Of a stretch of 56,740 bases of DNA, positions 675 to 9,325 are shown piece after piece. The position numbers were made by a program, and so were the translations under genes. Source of the DNA: Gaiellales bacterium (GTDB taxonomy: Bacteria; Actinomycetota; Thermoleophilia; RBG-16-64-13); NCBI GenBank assembly GCA_012719395.1, contig JAAYAL010000039.1, forward strand, positions 1 through 56,740, written 5' to 3'. Within the stretch, counting starts at the first letter, position 1. Each line of letters starts with the position of its first letter. The notes under the pieces are model-generated. The model did no database searches and was not told the origin of the DNA. It worked only from the letters and a program-made list of their open reading frames with translations.

Positions 675-2648
675 CTAATCGGGGAGAGGGAGGTGCGCCA
701 GCCGGTGCCGGAGGCGACCCTGGAACTGGACCCACGCGGCCTGGTCGCGGGCGGCGGTCACGTCTGCCGGAGGCACGGGGGCGTCGGGATCATCCTCAGG
801 GAGAACGGCGCCCACTTCTTGGAACACCGATCCCAGGAGCGAGGTCCGCTTGCGCAAAGAGGCCTGGGATAGGAGCGCACCCAGCGGCAGCAGCGCCACA
901 ATGCCTCCCACCAGGAGCCCGGTGGCGGCTTTCCCCTCCCCTTCGTCCTCAGGTATCTTCTGCCCGGTCACGGCGATGTCGCCGCCGTCAGCCTCGCCAA
1001 AGGTGCCGTCCTCCGGAGTCTGCATGGCTGTGCCCGCCACAAGCCCATCGTTGGTCTGCAGAGGCATGGCCTCGCCTGCCCGGGTCTGCGCGTGTCCGGC
1101 AGAGTCGGTACCGATGCGGGTGCGGGCAGTGCTGGTGGTGTACCCCAGAGGATCATAACCCGAGGGAGTACCGATGCGGGCGGGACGCGTGGAACCGCCT
1201 GAGGTACCACCGCCGCCGGATCCGGTTCCGCCCACATAGGTGACCCGGCGGGTGGTGGTTGTGGTGGTGGTTGTGGTGGTGGTTGTGGTGGCTGCCACCG
1301 AGATGGTGGACTCCTGGGTCAGCGTATGGCCGGCCAGGTCACCGATAGTGAGCGAGAGACTGTGTTGACCGGCGCCCAGGTCATCGATGACCAGGGTGAA
1401 GCCGCCTGTCGTGGCGCTGTTGGCGGGGACCTGCCTCTCCGCCCCGTTGATCTTCAGATGTATGCGGGCCTGGTCCAAGCCGGTGCCGCCGGTGTTGTCG
1501 GCGAAGGAGGCCACGATCTCGAAGGCCCCCGAGGGCAGTTGCGCACCGGCTGTCGGAGCGAAGGAGTGCAGGATGGGAACATAGTCCGGGGCAACCGCGT
1601 TCGCCGTCAACGTCACCGGAAAGGGCCGGCCGCACAGGGCGATGATGGCCTGGGTGGTGGTCATCACCGGAGTGGCCACTTGGCCTTGGTAGTGGGCGAA
1701 GCATCCATCGGCCTGCTGCAGCGCCAGGAGGTAGGAGATGGGGTTGGCCCCCTCGGAAGTGGTCCAGGTGGAGGGGTCCCCGCCGGCGGCCAGTATGGCC
1801 TGTACCGCCCAGGAGGTTGACTCGGCCGTGCTCTTGTTGCTGACGCCCCAGCCCAGGAAGCCGCCATCGGGCAACTGACTGCTACGCAGGTAGTCAAGCG
1901 CGCGGGTGACCGCGGGATCCGCGGCATCCACGCCGGCTGCGAGCAACGCCTGTACCGCCGCCCCGGTGTCATCCACGTCCGTGGCCGCGGCACTGGAGGA
2001 CTGGAAGGCAAAACCGCCGTTTTCCCCCTGCACGCTTGACAGCCACTGAGCCGCCCGGGCCGCATCCTCACTGCGACCGGCCGCCGCCAGGGCCAGTGTG
2101 GCCCAGATGGTGGTGCTGATGTCCGCCGAGGTGCTTCCCGCAGATATGCGGAACCGCCCGTCGGCAGCATCCTGGTAGGAGAGAAGGGTGGAGACCAGGT
2201 CCAGTGAGGGATTGCCGGCCAGCACAGCCAGGTCCGGCCGGCCGGCCGCTGTGAAGGCGAGTATCAGCTTGGCGTAGAAAGCAGGCGTGTTGTTGCTGCC
2301 CGAGCCTCGCTCCGCTTCCTGTTCCAGGTCTGCGTCACGCAATAGAGTCACCAGATCGTTGCCATCTGCCATCCAGGTGCTGGGATCGTAGCCCGCGGCG
2401 GAAATGGCCATGATGGCCCAGGGGGTGGAGCCCAGGTCGCCGGTGCTCGAAGAGGGTGAGAAACCGCCGTTGTCACGCCACTGCGCATGCAGGTAGTCAA
2501 GCCCCTTGGCTGAGGCCTGCTCGGGTGTGGCCGCCTGCGCGGCGGAGGGCATGGCGGCCGCCGTCAACAGGAGGAGGACCAGCAGGGCCGCCGAGAGCGC
2601 GGTCGTCCGGGGGTGGATTGCGTGTGAGAAGCGACGACGATGGCTCAT
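675..2648 (-). CDS. Membrane-anchored terpenoid-cyclase-like (alpha6/alpha6 toroid) protein, transcobalamin alpha-domain-like
   Basis: The 657-residue protein has a signal peptide (cleavage near AQA39) and then squalene-cyclase/prenyltransferase-type repeats to about residue 345. The repeats carry recurring QxxxGGF motifs: QWRDNGGF, VQGENGGF, SQLPDGGF and QQADGCF. Next come an Ig-like domain (about 360-460), a run of threonines, a glycine-rich linker, a hydrophobic anchor (GLLVGGIVALLPLGALL) and a cytoplasmic tail of about 60 residues. No catalytic DxDD motif of cyclases is evident. The same toroid fold forms the alpha domain of intrinsic factor and transcobalamin. Because the gene sits in an operon with two DUF4430 proteins and an ECF transporter behind a cobalamin riboswitch, I infer a role in B12 capture at the outer face of the membrane. 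The ATG overlaps the preceding stop by four bases and is preceded by GGAG. Fold call strong; ligand inferred. Confidence 0.8.
   Translation of the reverse strand: MSHRRRFSHAIHPRTTALSAALLVLLLLTAAAMPSAAQAATPEQASAKGLDYLHAQWRDNGGFSPSSSTGDLGSTPWAIMAISAAGYDPSTWMADGNDLVTLLRDADLEQEAERGSGSNNTPAFYAKLILAFTAAGRPDLAVLAGNPSLDLVSTLLSYQDAADGRFRISAGSTSADISTTIWATLALAAAGRSEDAARAAQWLSSVQGENGGFAFQSSSAAATDVDDTGAAVQALLAAGVDAADPAVTRALDYLRSSQLPDGGFLGWGVSNKSTAESTSWAVQAILAAGGDPSTWTTSEGANPISYLLALQQADGCFAHYQGQVATPVMTTTQAIIALCGRPFPVTLTANAVAPDYVPILHSFAPTAGAQLPSGAFEIVASFADNTGGTGLDQARIHLKINGAERQVPANSATTGGFTLVIDDLGAGQHSLSLTIGDLAGHTLTQESTISVAATTTTTTTTTTTTTRRVTYVGGTGSGGGGTSGGSTRPARIGTPSGYDPLGYTTSTARTRIGTDSAGHAQTRAGEAMPLQTNDGLVAGTAMQTPEDGTFGEADGGDIAVTGQKIPEDEGEGKAATGLLVGGIVALLPLGALLSQASLRKRTSLLGSVFQEVGAVLPEDDPDAPVPPADVTAARDQAAWVQFQGRLRHRLAHLPLPD
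1251..1291. repeat. 12-bp tandem repeat coding a poly-threonine linker
   Basis: On the plus strand the unit GGTGGTGGTTGT is repeated about 3.4 times without mismatch. On the coding (minus) strand it gives the threonine run between the Ig-like domain and the glycine-rich linker of the toroid protein. The unit is a multiple of three, so copy-number change would alter linker length without shifting the frame. The threonines could be glycosylated. Confidence 0.85.
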
Positions 2649-3427
2649 GAGGTCTCCAGGGGGAGGAAGCGGCAGTTGGTACGGGCCCGGTAGCGCGTCA
2701 ACATGCGAACGGTGGCGGGCCCGAAGAGGAGGCAGAAGAGGCCGGTGGCTGCACCATGCGCAGCGTCAAAAGGGAGGCCTCTGACGTAGAGGGCGAGCAG
2801 AGACGGCCAACTGTGATCGGTGAAGGAGAGGAACATCCACAAGGACACGAACCAGTCGAACAGCACGGACAGCATGGCGCCGACCGCGACGAGCATCCAC
2901 CGTGACGGCATCCGGCCTCGGCCGGCCAGGCCGGCGCCGGCTAGGCCGATCAATCCCCAGGCCAGCATTTGCCAAGGTGTCCAGGGGCCCTGCCCGAAGA
3001 ATAGATTCGAGATCAAACCGGTGGTGGCTCCAACCATGAAGCCGGGTCCCGGTCCCAGCGCGGCCCCGGCCACGAAGACCAGGTAGGTCACCGGCTTGAA
3101 GTTGGGCAAAGCGGCAAACAGGACGCGGCCGGCGGTGGCCACTGCCGCCAGGGTGGCCACCAGAGCCAGTTGCTGCGCCGTCTGCACGCGCCGGGACAGC
3201 AACGCATAGAGGAGCCCGCAGAGTAGGAGCACCGCCAGCATGGAGAAGGTTCCCCAGGTGAGCGTGCCAGGCCTGATGAGCCCCCAAGCCACCAACCCCA
3301 AGCATCCGGCGCCCATGGCGAGCGCGGGCCAGAGACCGCCATGATGAGCCGGCGCGTTCGGCGTCGTCGGGGCAGAGCGAAGGGCGGCCGCCGCAGCGCC
3401 CGTAGGGATGTCTCTCTCAGGCGGCAC
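2645..3427 (-). CDS. ECF transporter substrate-binding S component (predicted cobalamin-specific)
   Basis: A 260-residue integral membrane protein with a variable N-terminal segment and then five to six hydrophobic helices. It includes the ECF-S-like stretch PNFKPVTYLVFVAGAALG followed by FMVGATTGLISNLFFG. S components bind a vitamin with high affinity and dock onto the EcfT-EcfA energy module. I chose the GTG at 3427 because AGGAGG lies six bases upstream; it overlaps the end of the ATPase gene by 11 bases. Longer versions of this frame are out-of-frame readings of the ATPase gene. The family is well supported. Cobalamin as substrate is inferred from the upstream B12 riboswitch and the DUF4430/toroid neighbours, in line with riboswitch-controlled Cbr-type ECF systems. 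Confidence 0.82.
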   Translation of the reverse strand: MPPERDIPTGAAAAALRSAPTTPNAPAHHGGLWPALAMGAGCLGLVAWGLIRPGTLTWGTFSMLAVLLLCGLLYALLSRRVQTAQQLALVATLAAVATAGRVLFAALPNFKPVTYLVFVAGAALGPGPGFMVGATTGLISNLFFGQGPWTPWQMLAWGLIGLAGAGLAGRGRMPSRWMLVAVGAMLSVLFDWFVSLWMFLSFTDHSWPSLLALYVRGLPFDAAHGAATGLFCLLFGPATVRMLTRYRARTNCRFLPLETS

Positions 3428-5105
3428 AGGTGGCCTCCTCTCCGCCCAAGGCCACGTCTTCCACCACCAGCACCCCCGGGAGGCTGCGCCTGAGTAGCCG
3501 GTTGATCTGGGTGGAGAAGAACAGGGAACCATCGAGTACCTCTCCGGCCGGGCCGTCCGCCACGATGCCACCATCTCCCAGGATGACGACCCGGTCGGCA
3601 AAGCGGGCGGCGAACTCCACATCGTGGGTCACCAGCAGCACGGCGGTTCCCGTGCCCACCCAGTCTTTTAGAACGGTGCCGAGCAGCAGTTTCGTCTCCG
3701 GGTCCAGGCCGCGCGTGGGCTCGTCAAGCACCAGCACGTCCGGATGGCCGGCGGCCACCAGCCCGAGTGCCGCACGGGTACGTTCGCCACCGGAGAGATC
3801 CCGGGGATGTCGGTCCAGCAGACCCTGGAGGTGCAGTTCCTGTGTGATGCGTGCTTGTTCGGCCTCCAACTCCACTCCACCCATTCCGCGCAGGGTCAAG
3901 GAGTAGCGCAGTTCCTCTTCGACCGTGTCCTTGACGAAGTAGTCACGCGGGTTCTGGGTCAGAAGCGCACAGCGCGTGGCTCTCTGTGCGGCGGGTAGCG
4001 ATTCGATAGGCGTCCCCCCCAACATGACTTGTCCCGCGAGTGGGCGGCTCAGGCCCATCAGGTGCCGGATCAGCGTGGATTTGCCGCTGCCATTCTCGCC
4101 CATGAGGGCGGTGAACTCCCCCTCATGGATTGCCAGGCTCAGCCCGTCCAGTACCGGTGCATCCGGTGGGTAGCCCACTGTCAGGCCGTGCGCTACGATG
4201 CGCGCCACACCGCGGTGGGAGGAAGGGGCGAGCGGGGGTCGCACCCGGCGCGCCGTCAATCCCCGGTCTCCCAGAGCGCGGCGGGCCTCCTTCACCGTCA
4301 GCGGCAGCACGGACTTCCCACCCTGCCCGTCCCCCTGTGCGTGTGGCGACGCGGCCAGGAGGCTCGTCACCGGCGGTAGGTAGAGAGGCTTGTGTGTGTC
4401 GGCCCACGAGCACAGCTCACGTGGAGCGGCGTCCTTGACGATGGAGCCCTGCTCCAAGAAAAGGACGCGTGAGGCAAGATGAAGGCATCGGTCAACACGA
4501 TGCTCTGCCAAGAGGATGGTGGAGCCGGTGTCCTCACTCAGGCGCCGTAGCGCGGAAAGCAGTTCCTCCGCACTGACCGGGTCCAGTTGCGATGTGGGTT
4601 CGTCCAGCAAGATTATCTGCGGCTGGAGTGCCAGGACGGCGGCCAGCGCCACCTTCTGCAGTTCTCCCCCGGAGAGGGTGGCCAGGGACGCGCGGCGCAG
4701 CCGGGAGAGCCCCAGCGACACCAGCGATTCCTCCACCAGACGTCCTATGGCTGGCGCGGGGATGCCCATGTTCTCGAGCCCAAATGCGATCTCCCTCTCC
4801 ACTGTGGTCATGACCGCCTGGCTTTCCGGATCTTGAAACACCATGCCCACCATGGTTGCCAGATCACGCGGACGGCAGGAGCGGGTGTCACAGCCTCCGA
4901 CGCGCACCTGGCCTCCGAAGGTTCCTCCCGCGAAGTGGGGGACAAGGCCGTTGACGGCGCGCAGCAGGGTGGATTTACCACAGCCTGAGGCACCCAGCAG
5001 CAGCACCACCTCCGCCTCGCCGATCTTGAGGTTGATGTCACGAAGGCCGAGGCAACCGTCGGGGTAGCTGTAGCTGACACTTCTGAACTCTATGAGTGGC
5101 GCCAT
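3417..5105 (-). CDS. Fused EcfA1-EcfA2 ATPase of the ECF transporter
   Basis: The 562-residue protein carries two ABC ATPase domains in tandem. Domain 1 has Walker A GASGCGKST, signature LSGGELQK and Walker B IILLDEPTSQLD. Domain 2 (from about residue 305) has GENGSGKST, LSGGERTR and VLVLDEPTRGLD. Both sites look complete, so both should hydrolyse ATP. In most ECF systems EcfA and EcfA' are separate genes; here one chain supplies both. The start is ATG at 5105, where homology begins (MAPLIEFRSVSYSYPDG). It overlaps the end of ecfT by 16 bases and has only a weak AGGGA upstream, which suggests translational coupling. A longer reading to 5234 is out-of-frame ecfT sequence. Confidence 0.93.
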   Translation of the reverse strand: MAPLIEFRSVSYSYPDGCLGLRDINLKIGEAEVVLLLGASGCGKSTLLRAVNGLVPHFAGGTFGGQVRVGGCDTRSCRPRDLATMVGMVFQDPESQAVMTTVEREIAFGLENMGIPAPAIGRLVEESLVSLGLSRLRRASLATLSGGELQKVALAAVLALQPQIILLDEPTSQLDPVSAEELLSALRRLSEDTGSTILLAEHRVDRCLHLASRVLFLEQGSIVKDAAPRELCSWADTHKPLYLPPVTSLLAASPHAQGDGQGGKSVLPLTVKEARRALGDRGLTARRVRPPLAPSSHRGVARIVAHGLTVGYPPDAPVLDGLSLAIHEGEFTALMGENGSGKSTLIRHLMGLSRPLAGQVMLGGTPIESLPAAQRATRCALLTQNPRDYFVKDTVEEELRYSLTLRGMGGVELEAEQARITQELHLQGLLDRHPRDLSGGERTRAALGLVAAGHPDVLVLDEPTRGLDPETKLLLGTVLKDWVGTGTAVLLVTHDVEFAARFADRVVILGDGGIVADGPAGEVLDGSLFFSTQINRLLRRSLPGVLVVEDVALGGEEATCAA

Positions 5106-5998
5106 ACCGTCCCTGCGATTCCAGGAAGGGCCAGCGAGACGAGCAGCAGCATCGGCCAGAACGAGAGGAAGGTAGAGAGCGGGTCGTCGACGGCGGGGAA
5201 GTAGGCGAAGCTCACGGAACCGGCTGCCGCGCAAGTCACGGCCAACGCCGTGCCGGTCAGCCCGATGCCGGTGAGGAGGGCGTCACCCCTGGCAAAACGT
5301 CTGCGGCCGGACCACGTGGTGCGATGCCGCCTACCGAATCCCCTGGATTCCATGGAGGCGGCCACGTCACCGGCTCGCTCCAAGCTCTGGCCCAGGAGAC
5401 CGCTGAGAAGTGGCCCGCGGGCGGCGGCGCGGCGGTGCCATCGCCCGCGGTCCAGCTCCGCTCCCCGGGACCTCTGCGCATCGCTGATGCGGCAGGCATC
5501 CTGGGAGAGCACGGGGAGCAGTCTGGTGGCTAGGGATACCACCAAGGCCGAACGGAAGGAGAGCCGGCTCAGCAGGGAGAGTTGATCGTCTGGGTCGAGC
5601 AGGGAATTGAACTGTCCGAAGGCCAGCACCACGGCCAGCAGGTGCAGGGACTGGCCCACGCCTGCTACCAGCCCTTCCCAGGTGATGCGTAGTGTCAGTG
5701 GTCCCACTCGGGCGGTGAGGAGCGGAGTGATTCCCCCTTGGCTGCAGAGCGGGTTGATAACCAAGACCACGAGAGACGTGTAGAGGCCCACCTTCACGTA
5801 GGGGGCGGCGGCGGGCAGGCGGCCCGCCGCCCATAGGGTCAGCAGGTTGAGGCCCACCAGAATGACCAGAGCCAGTGGATTCTCCACCACAAGAGCTGCC
5901 ATCACCATGGCTACGCTGACGGTGAGCAGCGCCAGGGGATGGCGGGCGGCCAGCCCACGAGCCGCCTTCTGCCGACGGTACTCTGGGCGCCCGGTCAC
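5090..5998 (-). CDS. EcfT-type transmembrane coupling subunit
   Basis: The 302-residue protein has four N-terminal hydrophobic segments, a cytoplasmic coupling region and a C-terminal pair of hydrophobic segments. The coupling region holds the two arginine signatures typical of EcfT/CbiQ: QRSRGAE and, about 55 residues later, SMESRGF. These helices contact the grooves of the two ATPase domains and transmit ATP-driven motion to the S component. The ATG overlaps the stop of the DUF4430 lipoprotein gene by four bases (ATGA), and the 3' end overlaps the ATPase start, so the transporter genes are tightly coupled. Confidence 0.93.
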   Translation of the reverse strand: MTGRPEYRRQKAARGLAARHPLALLTVSVAMVMAALVVENPLALVILVGLNLLTLWAAGRLPAAAPYVKVGLYTSLVVLVINPLCSQGGITPLLTARVGPLTLRITWEGLVAGVGQSLHLLAVVLAFGQFNSLLDPDDQLSLLSRLSFRSALVVSLATRLLPVLSQDACRISDAQRSRGAELDRGRWHRRAAARGPLLSGLLGQSLERAGDVAASMESRGFGRRHRTTWSGRRRFARGDALLTGIGLTGTALAVTCAAAGSVSFAYFPAVDDPLSTFLSFWPMLLLVSLALPGIAGTVWRHS

Positions 5999-6966
5999 GA
6001 GCCGGCTCCGGCCGGCAGGGTTTGGACTGCGTCATCCGAAAGGTACACGCCGACGTGACCACTCAGGTCGCCGGGAGAGATTTGCTGGAGGAATGCCTCA
6101 AGAGAGGCCTGGTCAGAGGCCAGCACCAGCAAGACCAGGGCATCCGGCGCGGAGGGGTTGCGAACGGCCAGAGCGATCGCCTCTGCCGGTCCCTCTACAT
6201 CTCCCTGTTCGGTGAGCACCTGGAGCCTCTCGCCGTTCACCTGGGCAAAGATGCCGGCGCGGGCGCCTGCCTTCAGCGCCTCCATCACCCACGTCGGCAG
6301 GCCGGTGTCCAGTGTGTAGGCGGCAGCGGCATGGCCCGCGCCTGGCACGTCGCCGGCGTCCGGGCCATCATGGTCATGCGGGAGCGCGGTTTCCACCCCG
6401 GCTTCGGCCAGCCATTCGCGCAGCGCCGCTGCGGTGTCCGGGCCCAGGACCTGCACGGGCGCCACGGAGAAGGGGCGGGGGAACGCCGCCAGCGTCGACT
6501 GGATCATCGCGGCCCCCGACCAGGGATGATAGTCCCACCACACAGTTTGCCCGGCGACCAGCGCGTGGTCTCCCGCTCCTACCTCGCCAAGCGAGCCATC
6601 CACCCAATAGAACCAGTCGTGGGGCGCCGAGGCCCCGCTCCTGCCGAAGGTGGAGGCCAGACCGTCGATGGCTCCCACGAACCCTCCACCGTAGCCGGTC
6701 TCCACCTCCGTAGCCGACGCCAGCAGGCTCATGGCCGTCATGCCGTCCGCGTGGGGAGCGGTGGTGTCCAGAAGCACCTGGGCGCCGAAATCTCGTGTGA
6801 TGAGCAGCCTTACGGGTGAGCTCACGGAGTCGGCATTGAGGACGGCCGTGGTGGGAGCGGTGTCAACCGAGCACCCGGTCAGGAACAGCGCGAAGGCGAG
6901 AAGGCCGAGCAGGGCCATGGCCCGTAGGCCTTCTCGCCTTCGCGTGGTGTCCGCGCGCGGAGTCAT
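5995..6966 (-). CDS. DUF4430-domain lipoprotein
   Basis: The 323-residue protein begins with a basic N-terminus, a hydrophobic core and the lipobox LTGC (Cys at about 32), so it should be lipid-anchored on the outer face of the membrane. A DUF4430 domain follows (about 50-160), with the aromatic core DWFYWVDGSLGEVGAGDHALV followed by VWWDY. DUF4430 matches the beta domain of transcobalamin and intrinsic factor. A second half of about 150 residues has no family I recognise; it contains a His/Asp-rich patch (PHDHDGPDAG). Its place between the SLH-DUF4430 gene and ecfT, in a B12-riboswitch operon, suggests it hands cobalamin or a corrinoid to the transporter. That role is inferred. The ATG overlaps the preceding stop. 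Confidence 0.85.
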   Translation of the reverse strand: MTPRADTTRRREGLRAMALLGLLAFALFLTGCSVDTAPTTAVLNADSVSSPVRLLITRDFGAQVLLDTTAPHADGMTAMSLLASATEVETGYGGGFVGAIDGLASTFGRSGASAPHDWFYWVDGSLGEVGAGDHALVAGQTVWWDYHPWSGAAMIQSTLAAFPRPFSVAPVQVLGPDTAAALREWLAEAGVETALPHDHDGPDAGDVPGAGHAAAAYTLDTGLPTWVMEALKAGARAGIFAQVNGERLQVLTEQGDVEGPAEAIALAVRNPSAPDALVLLVLASDQASLEAFLQQISPGDLSGHVGVYLSDDAVQTLPAGAGS

Positions 6967-8315
6967 TCAGCCAGCGAGTCGTTGAGGTCGAGGTAGTTGT
7001 TGATGACCTGCGCGGCTTCAGCCCGTGGCATAGGCGCCCAGGGGTCGGCGGCAGAGCCGTGGAGGTCGAGGCCCTCCAGTAGTCCGTTGTGCTGGGCCAG
7101 GGCGGCCAGGGGTGCATGGACCTCGGAGAAGTTGCCCCAGGCGCTCTGGAAGTTGGCGGGTGGTTCAGCCGTCAGTCCTTGCTGGATGGCCGCCCTGGTC
7201 ACCATGGTGACCACCTGGGCGCGACTCACGTCCTCATAGGGGCCGAACGAGTTCGCCCCGGTTCCATTGACGATGCCGGCCCTATGCGCGGCCGCCACGT
7301 AGTCGTGCGGGTAGGGGTTGCCCGCTTGGCGTTCGCCCAGATCCCAGAAAGGCGAGGAAGCCCCGGGCACCACATCCAGTCCCACGGCCAAAGAAATCAT
7401 CTTGGCAAACTGGGCGCGGTAGAGCGAGGCCAAGGGGCGGAACTCGGTGCCGGTGGCCGAGGCATAGCCACCCACAATGCCAAGAGCGGCGATGCGGTGG
7501 ATGGCCTGATAGTGGGGGTTGCCGGTGGGCACGTCACTGAACTCCGCCACCAGCACGCGGCTGGGCGAGCTGCTCACGTACTGCCATTGGTCGTCGAAGG
7601 GCTTCTCCGCCCACACGCGATAGGCACCGGCGGGCAGATCTGTGATGGTGGCTCTCCCATCCGCTGCGGTCTGGTACGTGCGATCCCCTACGTGCAGGTT
7701 GGCTCCGACCACCGGCGCGAACTGCGAGGCGGTCTCCACCTGAGTGGCGGGATCCAGCCCGAACTTGGGCGCGTCGTCCGGGGAGTTGGCCTTGCCCAGG
7801 TCATCCCCGCGCACGGTGAAGGTGACCGCCTGTCCGGCCGGCGTCGCTGACGACCCCTCGACCACGAGCTCCTTGATGGTCCAGGGCGCCAGTGGATCGC
7901 CGCCTGCTTCGAAGTAGAGGAGCGTCTCCCCTTCGTCCAGCACCCAGTCCAGCATCCCCACCGCCGGCATGCAGCCGTTGACCGCATAGAGCCACCAGCT
8001 GGCCCAGTCGGCGGCCGGTCCGCCAATCCCCGCGATGGAACCGATGAAGGCCCCCCCATAGGTGGTGGCGAAATCGTCTTCGCTGTGCAGCGTGGTGAGA
8101 TACAGCGCGCCCAAGGGGTTGGCGGTGGTGCACTCGATGACCACGCCCTCGGCGTCAACGGCGGTCAACTGCTCCGGTACGGTCAGGGTCAAAGGGGAGG
8201 AGAGCTCCCAGCCCAAACCCTGGATACGGGTGGTGACATCCACAGCGAGCGCGGGAGGGACGGTCACTGCCAACAGGAGCAGCGCGAGGACAGCGGCCAG
8301 CAGGGGCTTCTTCAT
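6963..8315 (-). CDS. S-layer-anchored DUF4430 protein (DUF4430 - CnaB-like - three SLH)
   Basis: The 450-residue protein has a signal peptide (MKKPLLAAVLALLLL, cleavage near ALA25). The DUF4430 domain (about 26-150) has the core DWASWWLYAVNGCMPAVG. A short beta-sandwich resembling a CnaB or carboxypeptidase regulatory domain follows (TITDLPAGAYRVWAEK). Three SLH repeats end the protein, at about 265-445 (FSDVPTGNPHYQAIHRIAALG; FGPYEDVSRAQVVTMVTRA; MPRAEAAQVINNYL). SLH domains bind cell-wall polymers, so the DUF4430 domain would be displayed at the surface. This is the first gene after the cobalamin riboswitch and terminator. The ATG at 8315 has AAGGA about nine bases upstream; the longer in-frame reading crosses the riboswitch terminator and is not credible. 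Confidence 0.88.
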   Translation of the reverse strand: MKKPLLAAVLALLLLAVTVPPALAVDVTTRIQGLGWELSSPLTLTVPEQLTAVDAEGVVIECTTANPLGALYLTTLHSEDDFATTYGGAFIGSIAGIGGPAADWASWWLYAVNGCMPAVGMLDWVLDEGETLLYFEAGGDPLAPWTIKELVVEGSSATPAGQAVTFTVRGDDLGKANSPDDAPKFGLDPATQVETASQFAPVVGANLHVGDRTYQTAADGRATITDLPAGAYRVWAEKPFDDQWQYVSSSPSRVLVAEFSDVPTGNPHYQAIHRIAALGIVGGYASATGTEFRPLASLYRAQFAKMISLAVGLDVVPGASSPFWDLGERQAGNPYPHDYVAAAHRAGIVNGTGANSFGPYEDVSRAQVVTMVTRAAIQQGLTAEPPANFQSAWGNFSEVHAPLAALAQHNGLLEGLDLHGSAADPWAPMPRAEAAQVINNYLDLNDSLAE

Positions 8316-8372
8316 CTTCCAGCTTCCTTTCTTCTCCGCCGGCGCGGCCGCTGCGCTGTGAAGGGCCCCTAG

Positions 8373-8403
8373 AAACAAAAACCCCGCTGCTGCTGCAGCG
8401 GGG
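8373..8403 (-). terminator. Riboswitch-controlled intrinsic terminator
   Basis: On the minus strand CCCCGCTGC pairs perfectly with GCAGCGGGG across a four-base loop, followed by TTTTTGTTT. It lies between the cobalamin riboswitch and the first gene of the operon, so bound B12 should favour termination here. Confidence 0.92.
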
Positions 8404-8451
8404 TGCACTTCACCATATGGTTGCCGAGCACCCATCCGCGTGGGTTAGCAG

Positions 8452-8657
8452 CTCTTGGCGGCTTGGTCAGGTCTTCTGGCTTCCGGTCCTCTTCATGCCC
8501 GCCTCCGCATGCCTTCCCAGGTTTCCAACCCAGTGGCTTCTCCGGCACCCTGGAGGCGACGGAGAACGCGGTGGCGGCGACCGGCTACAGCGACGGGATC
8601 GCGCCGGACTCTCACCGGCTTCCCTTGGCCATGCCGCGCGCCGAACTTGATACGCAC
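8452..8657 (-). promoter_or_regulatory. Cobalamin riboswitch (B12 element)
   Basis: Read on the minus strand, the leader holds the hallmark blocks in the right order. GGGAAGCCGGTGAGAGTCC is followed by GCGCGATCCCGTCGCTGTA, then GAAGCCACTGG (B12-box core GCCACTG), AACCTGGGAAGG and GAAGCCAGAAGACCTG. The element starts just downstream of a sigma70-like promoter and ends about 50 bases before an intrinsic terminator, the layout of transcriptional control by attenuation. It is known that adenosylcobalamin-type ligands bind this RNA and switch genes off. The operon behind it should therefore be induced when B12 is scarce. Ends are approximate. Confidence 0.95.
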
Positions 8658-8661
8658 CTGC

Positions 8662-8690
8662 ATCGTAGTCCCGAGGGAGCGGGAATGCAA
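8662..8690 (-). promoter_or_regulatory. Sigma70-like promoter of the cobalamin-uptake operon
   Basis: On the minus strand TTGCAT (8690-8685) and TACGAT (8667-8662) are separated by exactly 17 bases. Transcription would start near 8655, at the 5' edge of the riboswitch. Confidence 0.6.
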
Positions 8691-8809: not shown

Positions 8810-9325
8810 ATGACCGGTTACGTGCAGGTCTACACGGGAAACGGGAAAGGGAAGACCACCGCAGCGTTGGGCTTGGCAATGCGTGCCGCCGGCGCGGGGC
8901 TGCGCGTGCTCTTCGCCCAGTTCATCAAGGGCATGGACTACAGCGAATTGGCGGCGCTGGCCCGCTTCAGCGATCTCATCGAGGTGCGCCGGTATGGGCG
9001 GGGTTGCTTCATCGTGGGGGAGCCGGAGGAGGAGGATTGCCGGCTGGCGGCAGCCGGCTTGTCCGATGCCGCGGAGGCCTTGGCATCCGGCGTCTACGAC
9101 CTGGTGGTACTGGACGAAGCCAATGTGGCCGTCTTCTTCGGGCTCTTCTCGGCGCAGGATCTCTTGCGGGTGGTTGAGATGCGGCCGCCGAGAGTGGAAC
9201 TGGTGATCACGGGGCGGTACGCCCCCGTTGAACTCATCGACCGCGCCGATCTGGTCACGGAGATGGTGGAGGTCAAGCACTACTACAGCAAGGGCGTGGA
9301 GGCGCGCCGCGGCATCGAGAGCTGA
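8810..9325 (+). CDS. cobO: Cob(I)yrinic acid a,c-diamide adenosyltransferase
   Basis: The 171-residue protein is a BtuR/CobO-type ATP:corrinoid adenosyltransferase, which transfers adenosyl from ATP to the cobalt of corrinoids. Visible features are the P-loop GNGKGKTTAALG at residue 10, the Walker-B-like VVLDEANVA and the C-terminal family signature VKHYYSKGVEARRGIE. Length fits the family. The ATG follows AGGAG by about five bases. The gene is divergent from the B12-uptake operon and shares its upstream region, but has no riboswitch on its own strand. The nearby genes do not include corrin-ring synthesis, so it probably converts imported corrinoid to the coenzyme form. Confidence 0.95.
   Translation: MTGYVQVYTGNGKGKTTAALGLAMRAAGAGLRVLFAQFIKGMDYSELAALARFSDLIEVRRYGRGCFIVGEPEEEDCRLAAAGLSDAAEALASGVYDLVVLDEANVAVFFGLFSAQDLLRVVEMRPPRVELVITGRYAPVELIDRADLVTEMVEVKHYYSKGVEARRGIES

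What the first reader, a model, noticed from the sequence alone, without database searches (positions are those of the whole stretch)
675..8690. Split transcobalamin-like B12 capture system in a riboswitch-controlled ECF operon
Seen: a cobalamin riboswitch drives an operon with two DUF4430 proteins (one SLH-anchored, one lipoprotein), a complete ECF transporter and a membrane-anchored alpha6/alpha6 toroid protein. Established: intrinsic factor and transcobalamin bind B12 between a toroid alpha domain and a DUF4430-like beta domain. Inference: this bacterium displays the two halves as separate proteins at different depths (cell wall, membrane surface, membrane anchor), forming a relay that passes corrinoid to the ECF permease. 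Two different beta proteins for one alpha protein suggest sequential hand-over or two ligands.
Basis: partly seen in the sequence, partly recalled or inferred. Interest (0 to 1): 0.82.

Follow-up and report, generated by a model that had tools for sequence, protein, structure and literature searches.

The report
Split bacterial transcobalamin-like vitamin B12 uptake operon
An uncultured actinobacterium carries a vitamin B12-switched operon that pairs a known type of B12 membrane pump with separate surface proteins resembling the two halves of the animal blood B12 carrier; the general kind was predicted in 2007, but the split form and its fusion to the pump in relatives are new and testable.

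Summary
A cobalamin riboswitch (68 bits, the only one in the genome) precedes D2 (DUF4430 + SLH), D1 (DUF4430 lipoprotein), a full ECF transporter and a membrane-anchored alpha6/alpha6 toroid; a corrinoid adenosyltransferase gene lies divergently next door.

Of 80 relatives, 67 hold D1+T+A+S+toroid. Where upstream DNA exists, 63 of 68 have a cobalamin riboswitch on the operon strand. In 36 loci toroid and DUF4430 share one polypeptide; a model of one such protein matches transcobalamin, haptocorrin and intrinsic factor as its 14 best PDB hits. In other relatives the toroid is fused to the CbrT-like protein, or D2 and toroid form their own riboswitch operon.

Corrinoid uptake is well supported and an alpha/beta transcobalamin-like trap likely. 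The staged relay is not shown. The general idea (DUF4430/toroid proteins with CbiO/CbiQ scavenge B12) was published in 2007 (PMC1796856). New here: the CbrT link, riboswitch statistics, the split and S-toroid-fused forms, and extension to Thermoleophilia and probably Streptomyces.

The parts
8469..8625 (-). Cobalamin riboswitch aptamer (RF00174), 5' of the operon
   Evidence: cmscan 68.3 bits, gathering 31.5; only copy in the genome
6963..8315 (-). D2: secreted DUF4430 (beta-grasp) protein with C-terminal S-layer homology (SLH) repeats; ORF can be extended to 8435 but the signal peptide starts near 8315
   Evidence: Pfam DUF4430 24.5 bits and SLH 49.4 bits; DUF4430 at 7923-8069; signal segment
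5995..6966 (-). D1: lipoprotein with DUF4430 (6526-6744) and a C-terminal extension
   Evidence: Pfam 48 bits; lipobox Cys invariant in 22 homologues; all 22 hit DUF4430
5090..5998 (-). T component (CbiQ/EcfT-like)
   Evidence: Pfam CbiQ 67 bits
3417..5105 (-). Energising ATPase, two ECF-type ABC domains fused (EcfA-EcfA'); ORF can be extended to 5234
   Evidence: two ABC_tran stretches, TIGR04520/TIGR04521 above cut-off
2645..3400 (-). S component, homologue of the vitamin B12 S component CbrT; ORF can be extended to 3622, start uncertain
   Evidence: phmmer to PDB 6FNP chain A, E 1.4e-12, only hit; profile E 1.3e-23
675..2648 (-). Membrane-anchored alpha6/alpha6 toroid protein (toroid domain about 1602-2561, Ig-like segment, C-terminal membrane helix about 870-926)
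   Evidence: SQHop_cyclase_C/Prenyltrans; AlphaFold2 model pLDDT 92.8; hydrophobic segments
8810..9325 (+). Corrinoid adenosyltransferase CobO/BtuR, divergent neighbour
   Evidence: Pfam 208.7 bits; a cobO gene also lies near the operon in several relatives

Best explanation
A high-affinity corrinoid (cobalamin/cobinamide) scavenging operon, repressed when cobalamin is plentiful. D1 (lipoprotein) and the membrane-anchored toroid act as the separated beta and alpha halves of a transcobalamin-like trap that closes over a corrinoid at the membrane surface and hands it to the CbrT-type S component, which the T/A module drives into the cell; CobO then adenosylates it. D2, held in the cell wall by SLH repeats, is a second beta half that captures corrinoid further out; in Bacillota its counterpart carries its own toroid in the same chain. 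Shown here by computation: the operon, riboswitch, S-component homology, conservation, fusions and fold. Inferred: ligand binding by the domains, D1-toroid or D2-toroid pairing, hand-over to S.
For: Riboswitch. S component = CbrT homologue; ECF-CbrT transports cobalamin and cobinamide and is PDB 6FNP (PMC5997447). Riboswitches found with a purpose-built model in most of 80 relatives, 72 of 75 on the operon strand. 67 of 80 loci hold D1+T+A+S+toroid. Toroid and DUF4430 in one chain in 36 loci; model of one such chain: top 14 PDB matches all transcobalamin, haptocorrin or intrinsic factor, E 1e-9 to 5e-7, over both domains. S fused to toroid in 16 ORFs. Separate riboswitch-D2-toroid operons (L042, L054, L056). 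Own genome: no CbiC, several B12-binding-domain proteins including an ornithine 4,5-aminomutase-type protein. Among 61 genomes those with DUF4430 have CbiC less often (3 of 23 against 16 of 38, Fisher p 0.023).
Against: The window's own toroid is closest in sequence and fold to squalene-hopene cyclases and other toroids, not to transcobalamin, and no PF01122 match was seen. D1's profile finds no transcobalamin chain by sequence. The fused model's superposition on transcobalamin is loose (TM about 0.45-0.50, rmsd about 10 A), so the arrangement of the two domains is not shown. No complex could be predicted and no binding is measured. Three relatives with the system also keep CbiC.
Confidence: 0.72

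Rival explanations
1. Corrinoid uptake is right, but the separate proteins do not form alpha/beta sandwiches: each DUF4430 domain binds corrinoid alone (or binds something else at the wall), and the toroid only docks on the S component as a scaffold or gate.
For: D1 and D2 differ from each other outside the DUF4430 core; toroid without DUF4430 sits next to or fused to S; the window toroid model is not specifically transcobalamin-like.
Against: 36 loci with toroid and DUF4430 in one chain and the transcobalamin-first fold match; in three genomes D2 and toroid alone form a riboswitch operon.
Confidence: 0.2
2. It is a cobalt uptake system: the T component is CbiQ-like and cobalt ECF transporters are also often under cobalamin riboswitches.
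For: CbiQ is the best Pfam match of the T component; B12 riboswitches often control cobalt transporters (general knowledge, not tested here).
Against: No CbiM or CbiN in the operon; the S component is a CbrT homologue and hits no other solved chain; no CbiC biosynthesis gene that would use cobalt.
Confidence: 0.03
3. The toroid is an enzyme (class II terpene cyclase or prenyltransferase-like) that happens to be in the operon.
For: Best matches in sequence and fold are squalene-hopene and drimenyl diphosphate cyclases; a DVDDT motif aligns with their catalytic DxDD, and its third residue is Asp in 42 of 42 homologues.
Against: Full DxDD in only 25 of 42; secreted and membrane-anchored; fused to DUF4430, SLH or the B12 S component in relatives, in corrinoid operons.
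Confidence: 0.04

Closest known systems
Bacterial transcobalamin-like SLBB/DUF4430 proteins with CbiO/CbiQ (Burroughs et al. 2007, PMC1796856)
   Same: DUF4430 domain, alpha/alpha toroid, surface location, second paralogous protein, operon with CbiO-like ATPase and CbiQ-like protein, predicted B12 scavenging
   Different: The passages read describe fused proteins and mainly low-GC Gram-positives; riboswitches are not mentioned. Here alpha and beta are separate proteins with three kinds of anchor, in Actinomycetota, with a CbrT-type S component
Animal transcobalamin, haptocorrin, intrinsic factor (PDB 2BB5, 4KKI, 2PMV)
   Same: Toroid plus beta-grasp domain; a fused bacterial relative matches these structures first
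   Different: Single soluble chain in animals; here two or three separate anchored proteins; toroid sequence nearer to squalene cyclases
ECF-CbrT of Lactobacillus delbrueckii (PDB 6FNP, PMC5997447)
   Same: S component homologous (E 1.4e-12), ECF module
   Different: No surface capture proteins were seen in the passages read; here the S component stands beside, or in relatives is fused to, a toroid
BtuG of Bacteroides (PMC6143338)
   Same: Surface lipoprotein that captures B12 ahead of the transporter
   Different: Beta-propeller, Gram-negative, works with BtuB; unrelated fold
Streptomyces SCO2321/SCO2322 family genes (NF053823, NF040672)
   Same: Toroid, small surface protein, T, A, S in one operon with riboswitch-like hits
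   Different: Toroid first in the operon; SCO2322 is not a Pfam DUF4430 member, only a weak profile match to D1 (86% probability)

Membership tests
Transcobalamin-like SLBB/DUF4430 scavenging systems (Burroughs 2007) | DUF4430 domain in secreted protein | tested here: met
Transcobalamin-like SLBB/DUF4430 scavenging systems (Burroughs 2007) | alpha/alpha toroid associated | tested here: met
   separate gene in the window (model); same chain in 36 relatives
Transcobalamin-like SLBB/DUF4430 scavenging systems (Burroughs 2007) | operon with CbiO/CbiQ-type genes | tested here: met
   67 of 80 loci
Transcobalamin-like SLBB/DUF4430 scavenging systems (Burroughs 2007) | host usually lacks de novo B12 synthesis | tested here: met
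   no CbiC in own genome; one marker gene only
Transcobalamin/intrinsic factor family proper | Alpha domain of the eukaryotic cobalamin-binding family (PF01122) | tested here: not met
   not among Pfam matches of the toroid or of 16 homologues
Transcobalamin/intrinsic factor family proper | Cobalamin bound between alpha and beta domains | not testable with these tools
   no ligand or complex modelling, no binding assay
CbrT-type ECF B12 transporter | S component homologous to CbrT | tested here: met
CbrT-type ECF B12 transporter | Transports cobalamin/cobinamide | not testable with these tools
   needs uptake assay
Cobalt ECF transporter (CbiMNQO) | CbiM S component | tested here: not met
   S matches DUF6580/ECF_trnsprt and CbrT, no CbiM

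The most novel reading that the evidence does not exclude
Bacteria assemble a transcobalamin-like trap from separate proteins at the cell surface, with the alpha half physically tied to the B12 S component, so that closing and opening of the alpha/beta trap directly loads the ECF permease; a wall-anchored second beta half passes corrinoid inward in a relay.
Probability: 0.3. Interest if true: 0.7.

Novelty: new variant of a known kind. Interest (0 to 1): 0.47.

Why it matters
How Gram-positive bacteria without an outer membrane capture scarce corrinoids is poorly known, and no experimental study of the bacterial transcobalamin-like proteins turned up in the held papers. A riboswitch, a CbrT-type S component and natural fusions of toroid to DUF4430 and of toroid to S give a concrete, testable chain of contacts. 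It also bears on the proposal that animals took transcobalamin from Gram-positive bacteria.

Tried and rejected
Sequence profile of D1 against the PDB: no transcobalamin hit, only chance matches. Window toroid model against the PDB: squalene-hopene cyclases and glycosidase-type toroids, transcobalamin not in the 50 listed; so the toroid alone does not prove the transcobalamin link. TPP riboswitch near L094 considered as a counter-example and rejected: between it and D1 lies a separate gene that reads like a thiamine S component. Cobalt uptake and terpene cyclase readings rejected (see rivals). Literature searches for SCO2321/CbrU/CbrV gave nothing useful.

Full report
Observation. Rfam finds one cobalamin riboswitch (8625-8469, 68.3 bits), the only one in the 2.43 Mb, 92-contig genome. 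Pfam gives DUF4430 plus SLH (D2), DUF4430 (D1), CbiQ (T), two ABC ATPase domains (A), an ECF substrate component (S) and squalene-cyclase/prenyltransferase repeats (toroid). A corrinoid adenosyltransferase (CobO/BtuR) is divergent at 8810-9325. Hydrophobicity shows a signal segment in D2, one in D1 with a lipobox, and N- and C-terminal segments in the toroid. The closest named relatives are Thermoleophilia/Actinomycetota assemblies.

Substrate. The S component alone finds one solved chain, 6FNP chain A, at E 1.4e-12, and its 21-member profile finds it at 1.3e-23. 6FNP is the ECF-CbrT complex, which transports cobalamin and cobinamide (PMC5997447). That chain A is the S subunit is inferred from its length of 182 residues and its homology to our S protein. 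With the riboswitch this makes corrinoid the most likely substrate and cobalt unlikely. The genome has no CbiC but has several B12-binding-domain proteins, among them a B12-dependent ornithine 4,5-aminomutase-type protein.

Conservation. In 60 relatives 22 others carry DUF4430; most of their loci hold the same operon and cobalamin riboswitches. A scan of GTDB genomes with the D1 alignment found 363 relatives; the best 80 were kept. Of these, 67 hold D1+T+A+S+toroid. A covariance model built from 22 of these riboswitches and Rfam place a cobalamin riboswitch upstream on the same strand in 63 of the 68 loci whose upstream DNA is not cut by a contig end (61 by script, plus L074 and L138 read by hand); 72 of 75 hits are on the operon strand.

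Rosetta-stone evidence. In 36 of the 80 loci toroid and DUF4430 lie in one polypeptide, often followed by SLH repeats. One such chain (Geosporobacter ferrireducens, L081 15970-17196, 409 residues, toroid first) was modelled (pLDDT 91.9, pTM 0.72); its 14 best PDB matches are all transcobalamin, haptocorrin or intrinsic factor, over both domains. The superposition is loose (TM 0.45-0.50), so fold content and domain order are supported, not the exact closed arrangement. In Thermoleophilia and Solirubrobacterales loci the toroid is instead fused to the CbrT-type S component (16 ORFs); no locus of the 80 shows both fusions. In three genomes D2 and the toroid form their own riboswitch-led pair (L042, L054, L056). 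The window has the fully separated form: two beta proteins, one alpha protein.

The window toroid itself. Its model is a confident alpha6/alpha6 toroid but its nearest structures are squalene-hopene cyclases and other toroids, as in sequence. An Asp that aligns with the cyclases' catalytic motif is invariant, yet the complete DxDD is present in only 25 of 42 homologues. An enzymatic role cannot be excluded from sequence but fits poorly with secretion and with the fusions.

Mechanism. Shown by computation: the operon, its switch, the CbrT homology, the conservation and the fusions. Inferred: D1 plus toroid form a trap at the membrane that loads S; D2 is an outer capture protein. Against a fixed three-step relay, some Actinomycetota relatives have a PQQ-type beta-propeller protein where D2 would be. 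So the outer protein looks exchangeable, whereas D1, toroid and S mostly stay together.

Known or new. Burroughs et al. 2007 (PMC1796856) already proposed that bacterial DUF4430-type (SLBB) proteins, fused to toroids and encoded with CbiO/CbiQ genes and a second paralogue, scavenge B12. The finding is therefore a variant of a known kind for which no experiment was found in the held papers. What is added: the CbrT-type S component, riboswitch linkage in numbers, the split form with three anchors, the toroid-S fusion, and probable extension to Streptomyces SCO2321/SCO2322 operons, where riboswitch hits are weaker and the SCO2322-D1 link is only 86% in profile comparison. The held library contains only open-licence papers, so subscription work could have gone further.

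Noticed in passing
L072 3441-6011, L086 7303-9924, L096 6938-9823, L113 7279-9825: In some Actinomycetota relatives the first gene after the cobalamin riboswitch is a secreted PQQ_2-type beta-propeller protein instead of D2; a beta-propeller in a B12 operon recalls BtuG of Bacteroides, without shown homology.
   Followed up: partly
L155-L160 (Streptomyces-type and other Actinomycetes): SCO2321-family toroid, SCO2322-like small surface protein, T, A, S in one operon with cobalamin riboswitch hits from model R1; two of the six also pass Rfam's threshold. Suggests a 1:1 split alpha/beta system in Streptomyces.
   Followed up: partly
G418, G359, G394, G288, G191 and others: Some Actinomycetota genomes have open frames of about 1000 to 2300 residues with several tandem DUF4430 domains.
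   Followed up: no
L038, L040, L047, L053: D1 homologue alone, without ECF T/S genes or riboswitch nearby, while D2 or D2-toroid sits elsewhere in the same genome.
   Followed up: no
L135 5510-9862, L118 5476-9630: Single proteins with one toroid and several DUF4430 stretches followed by SLH repeats.
   Followed up: no
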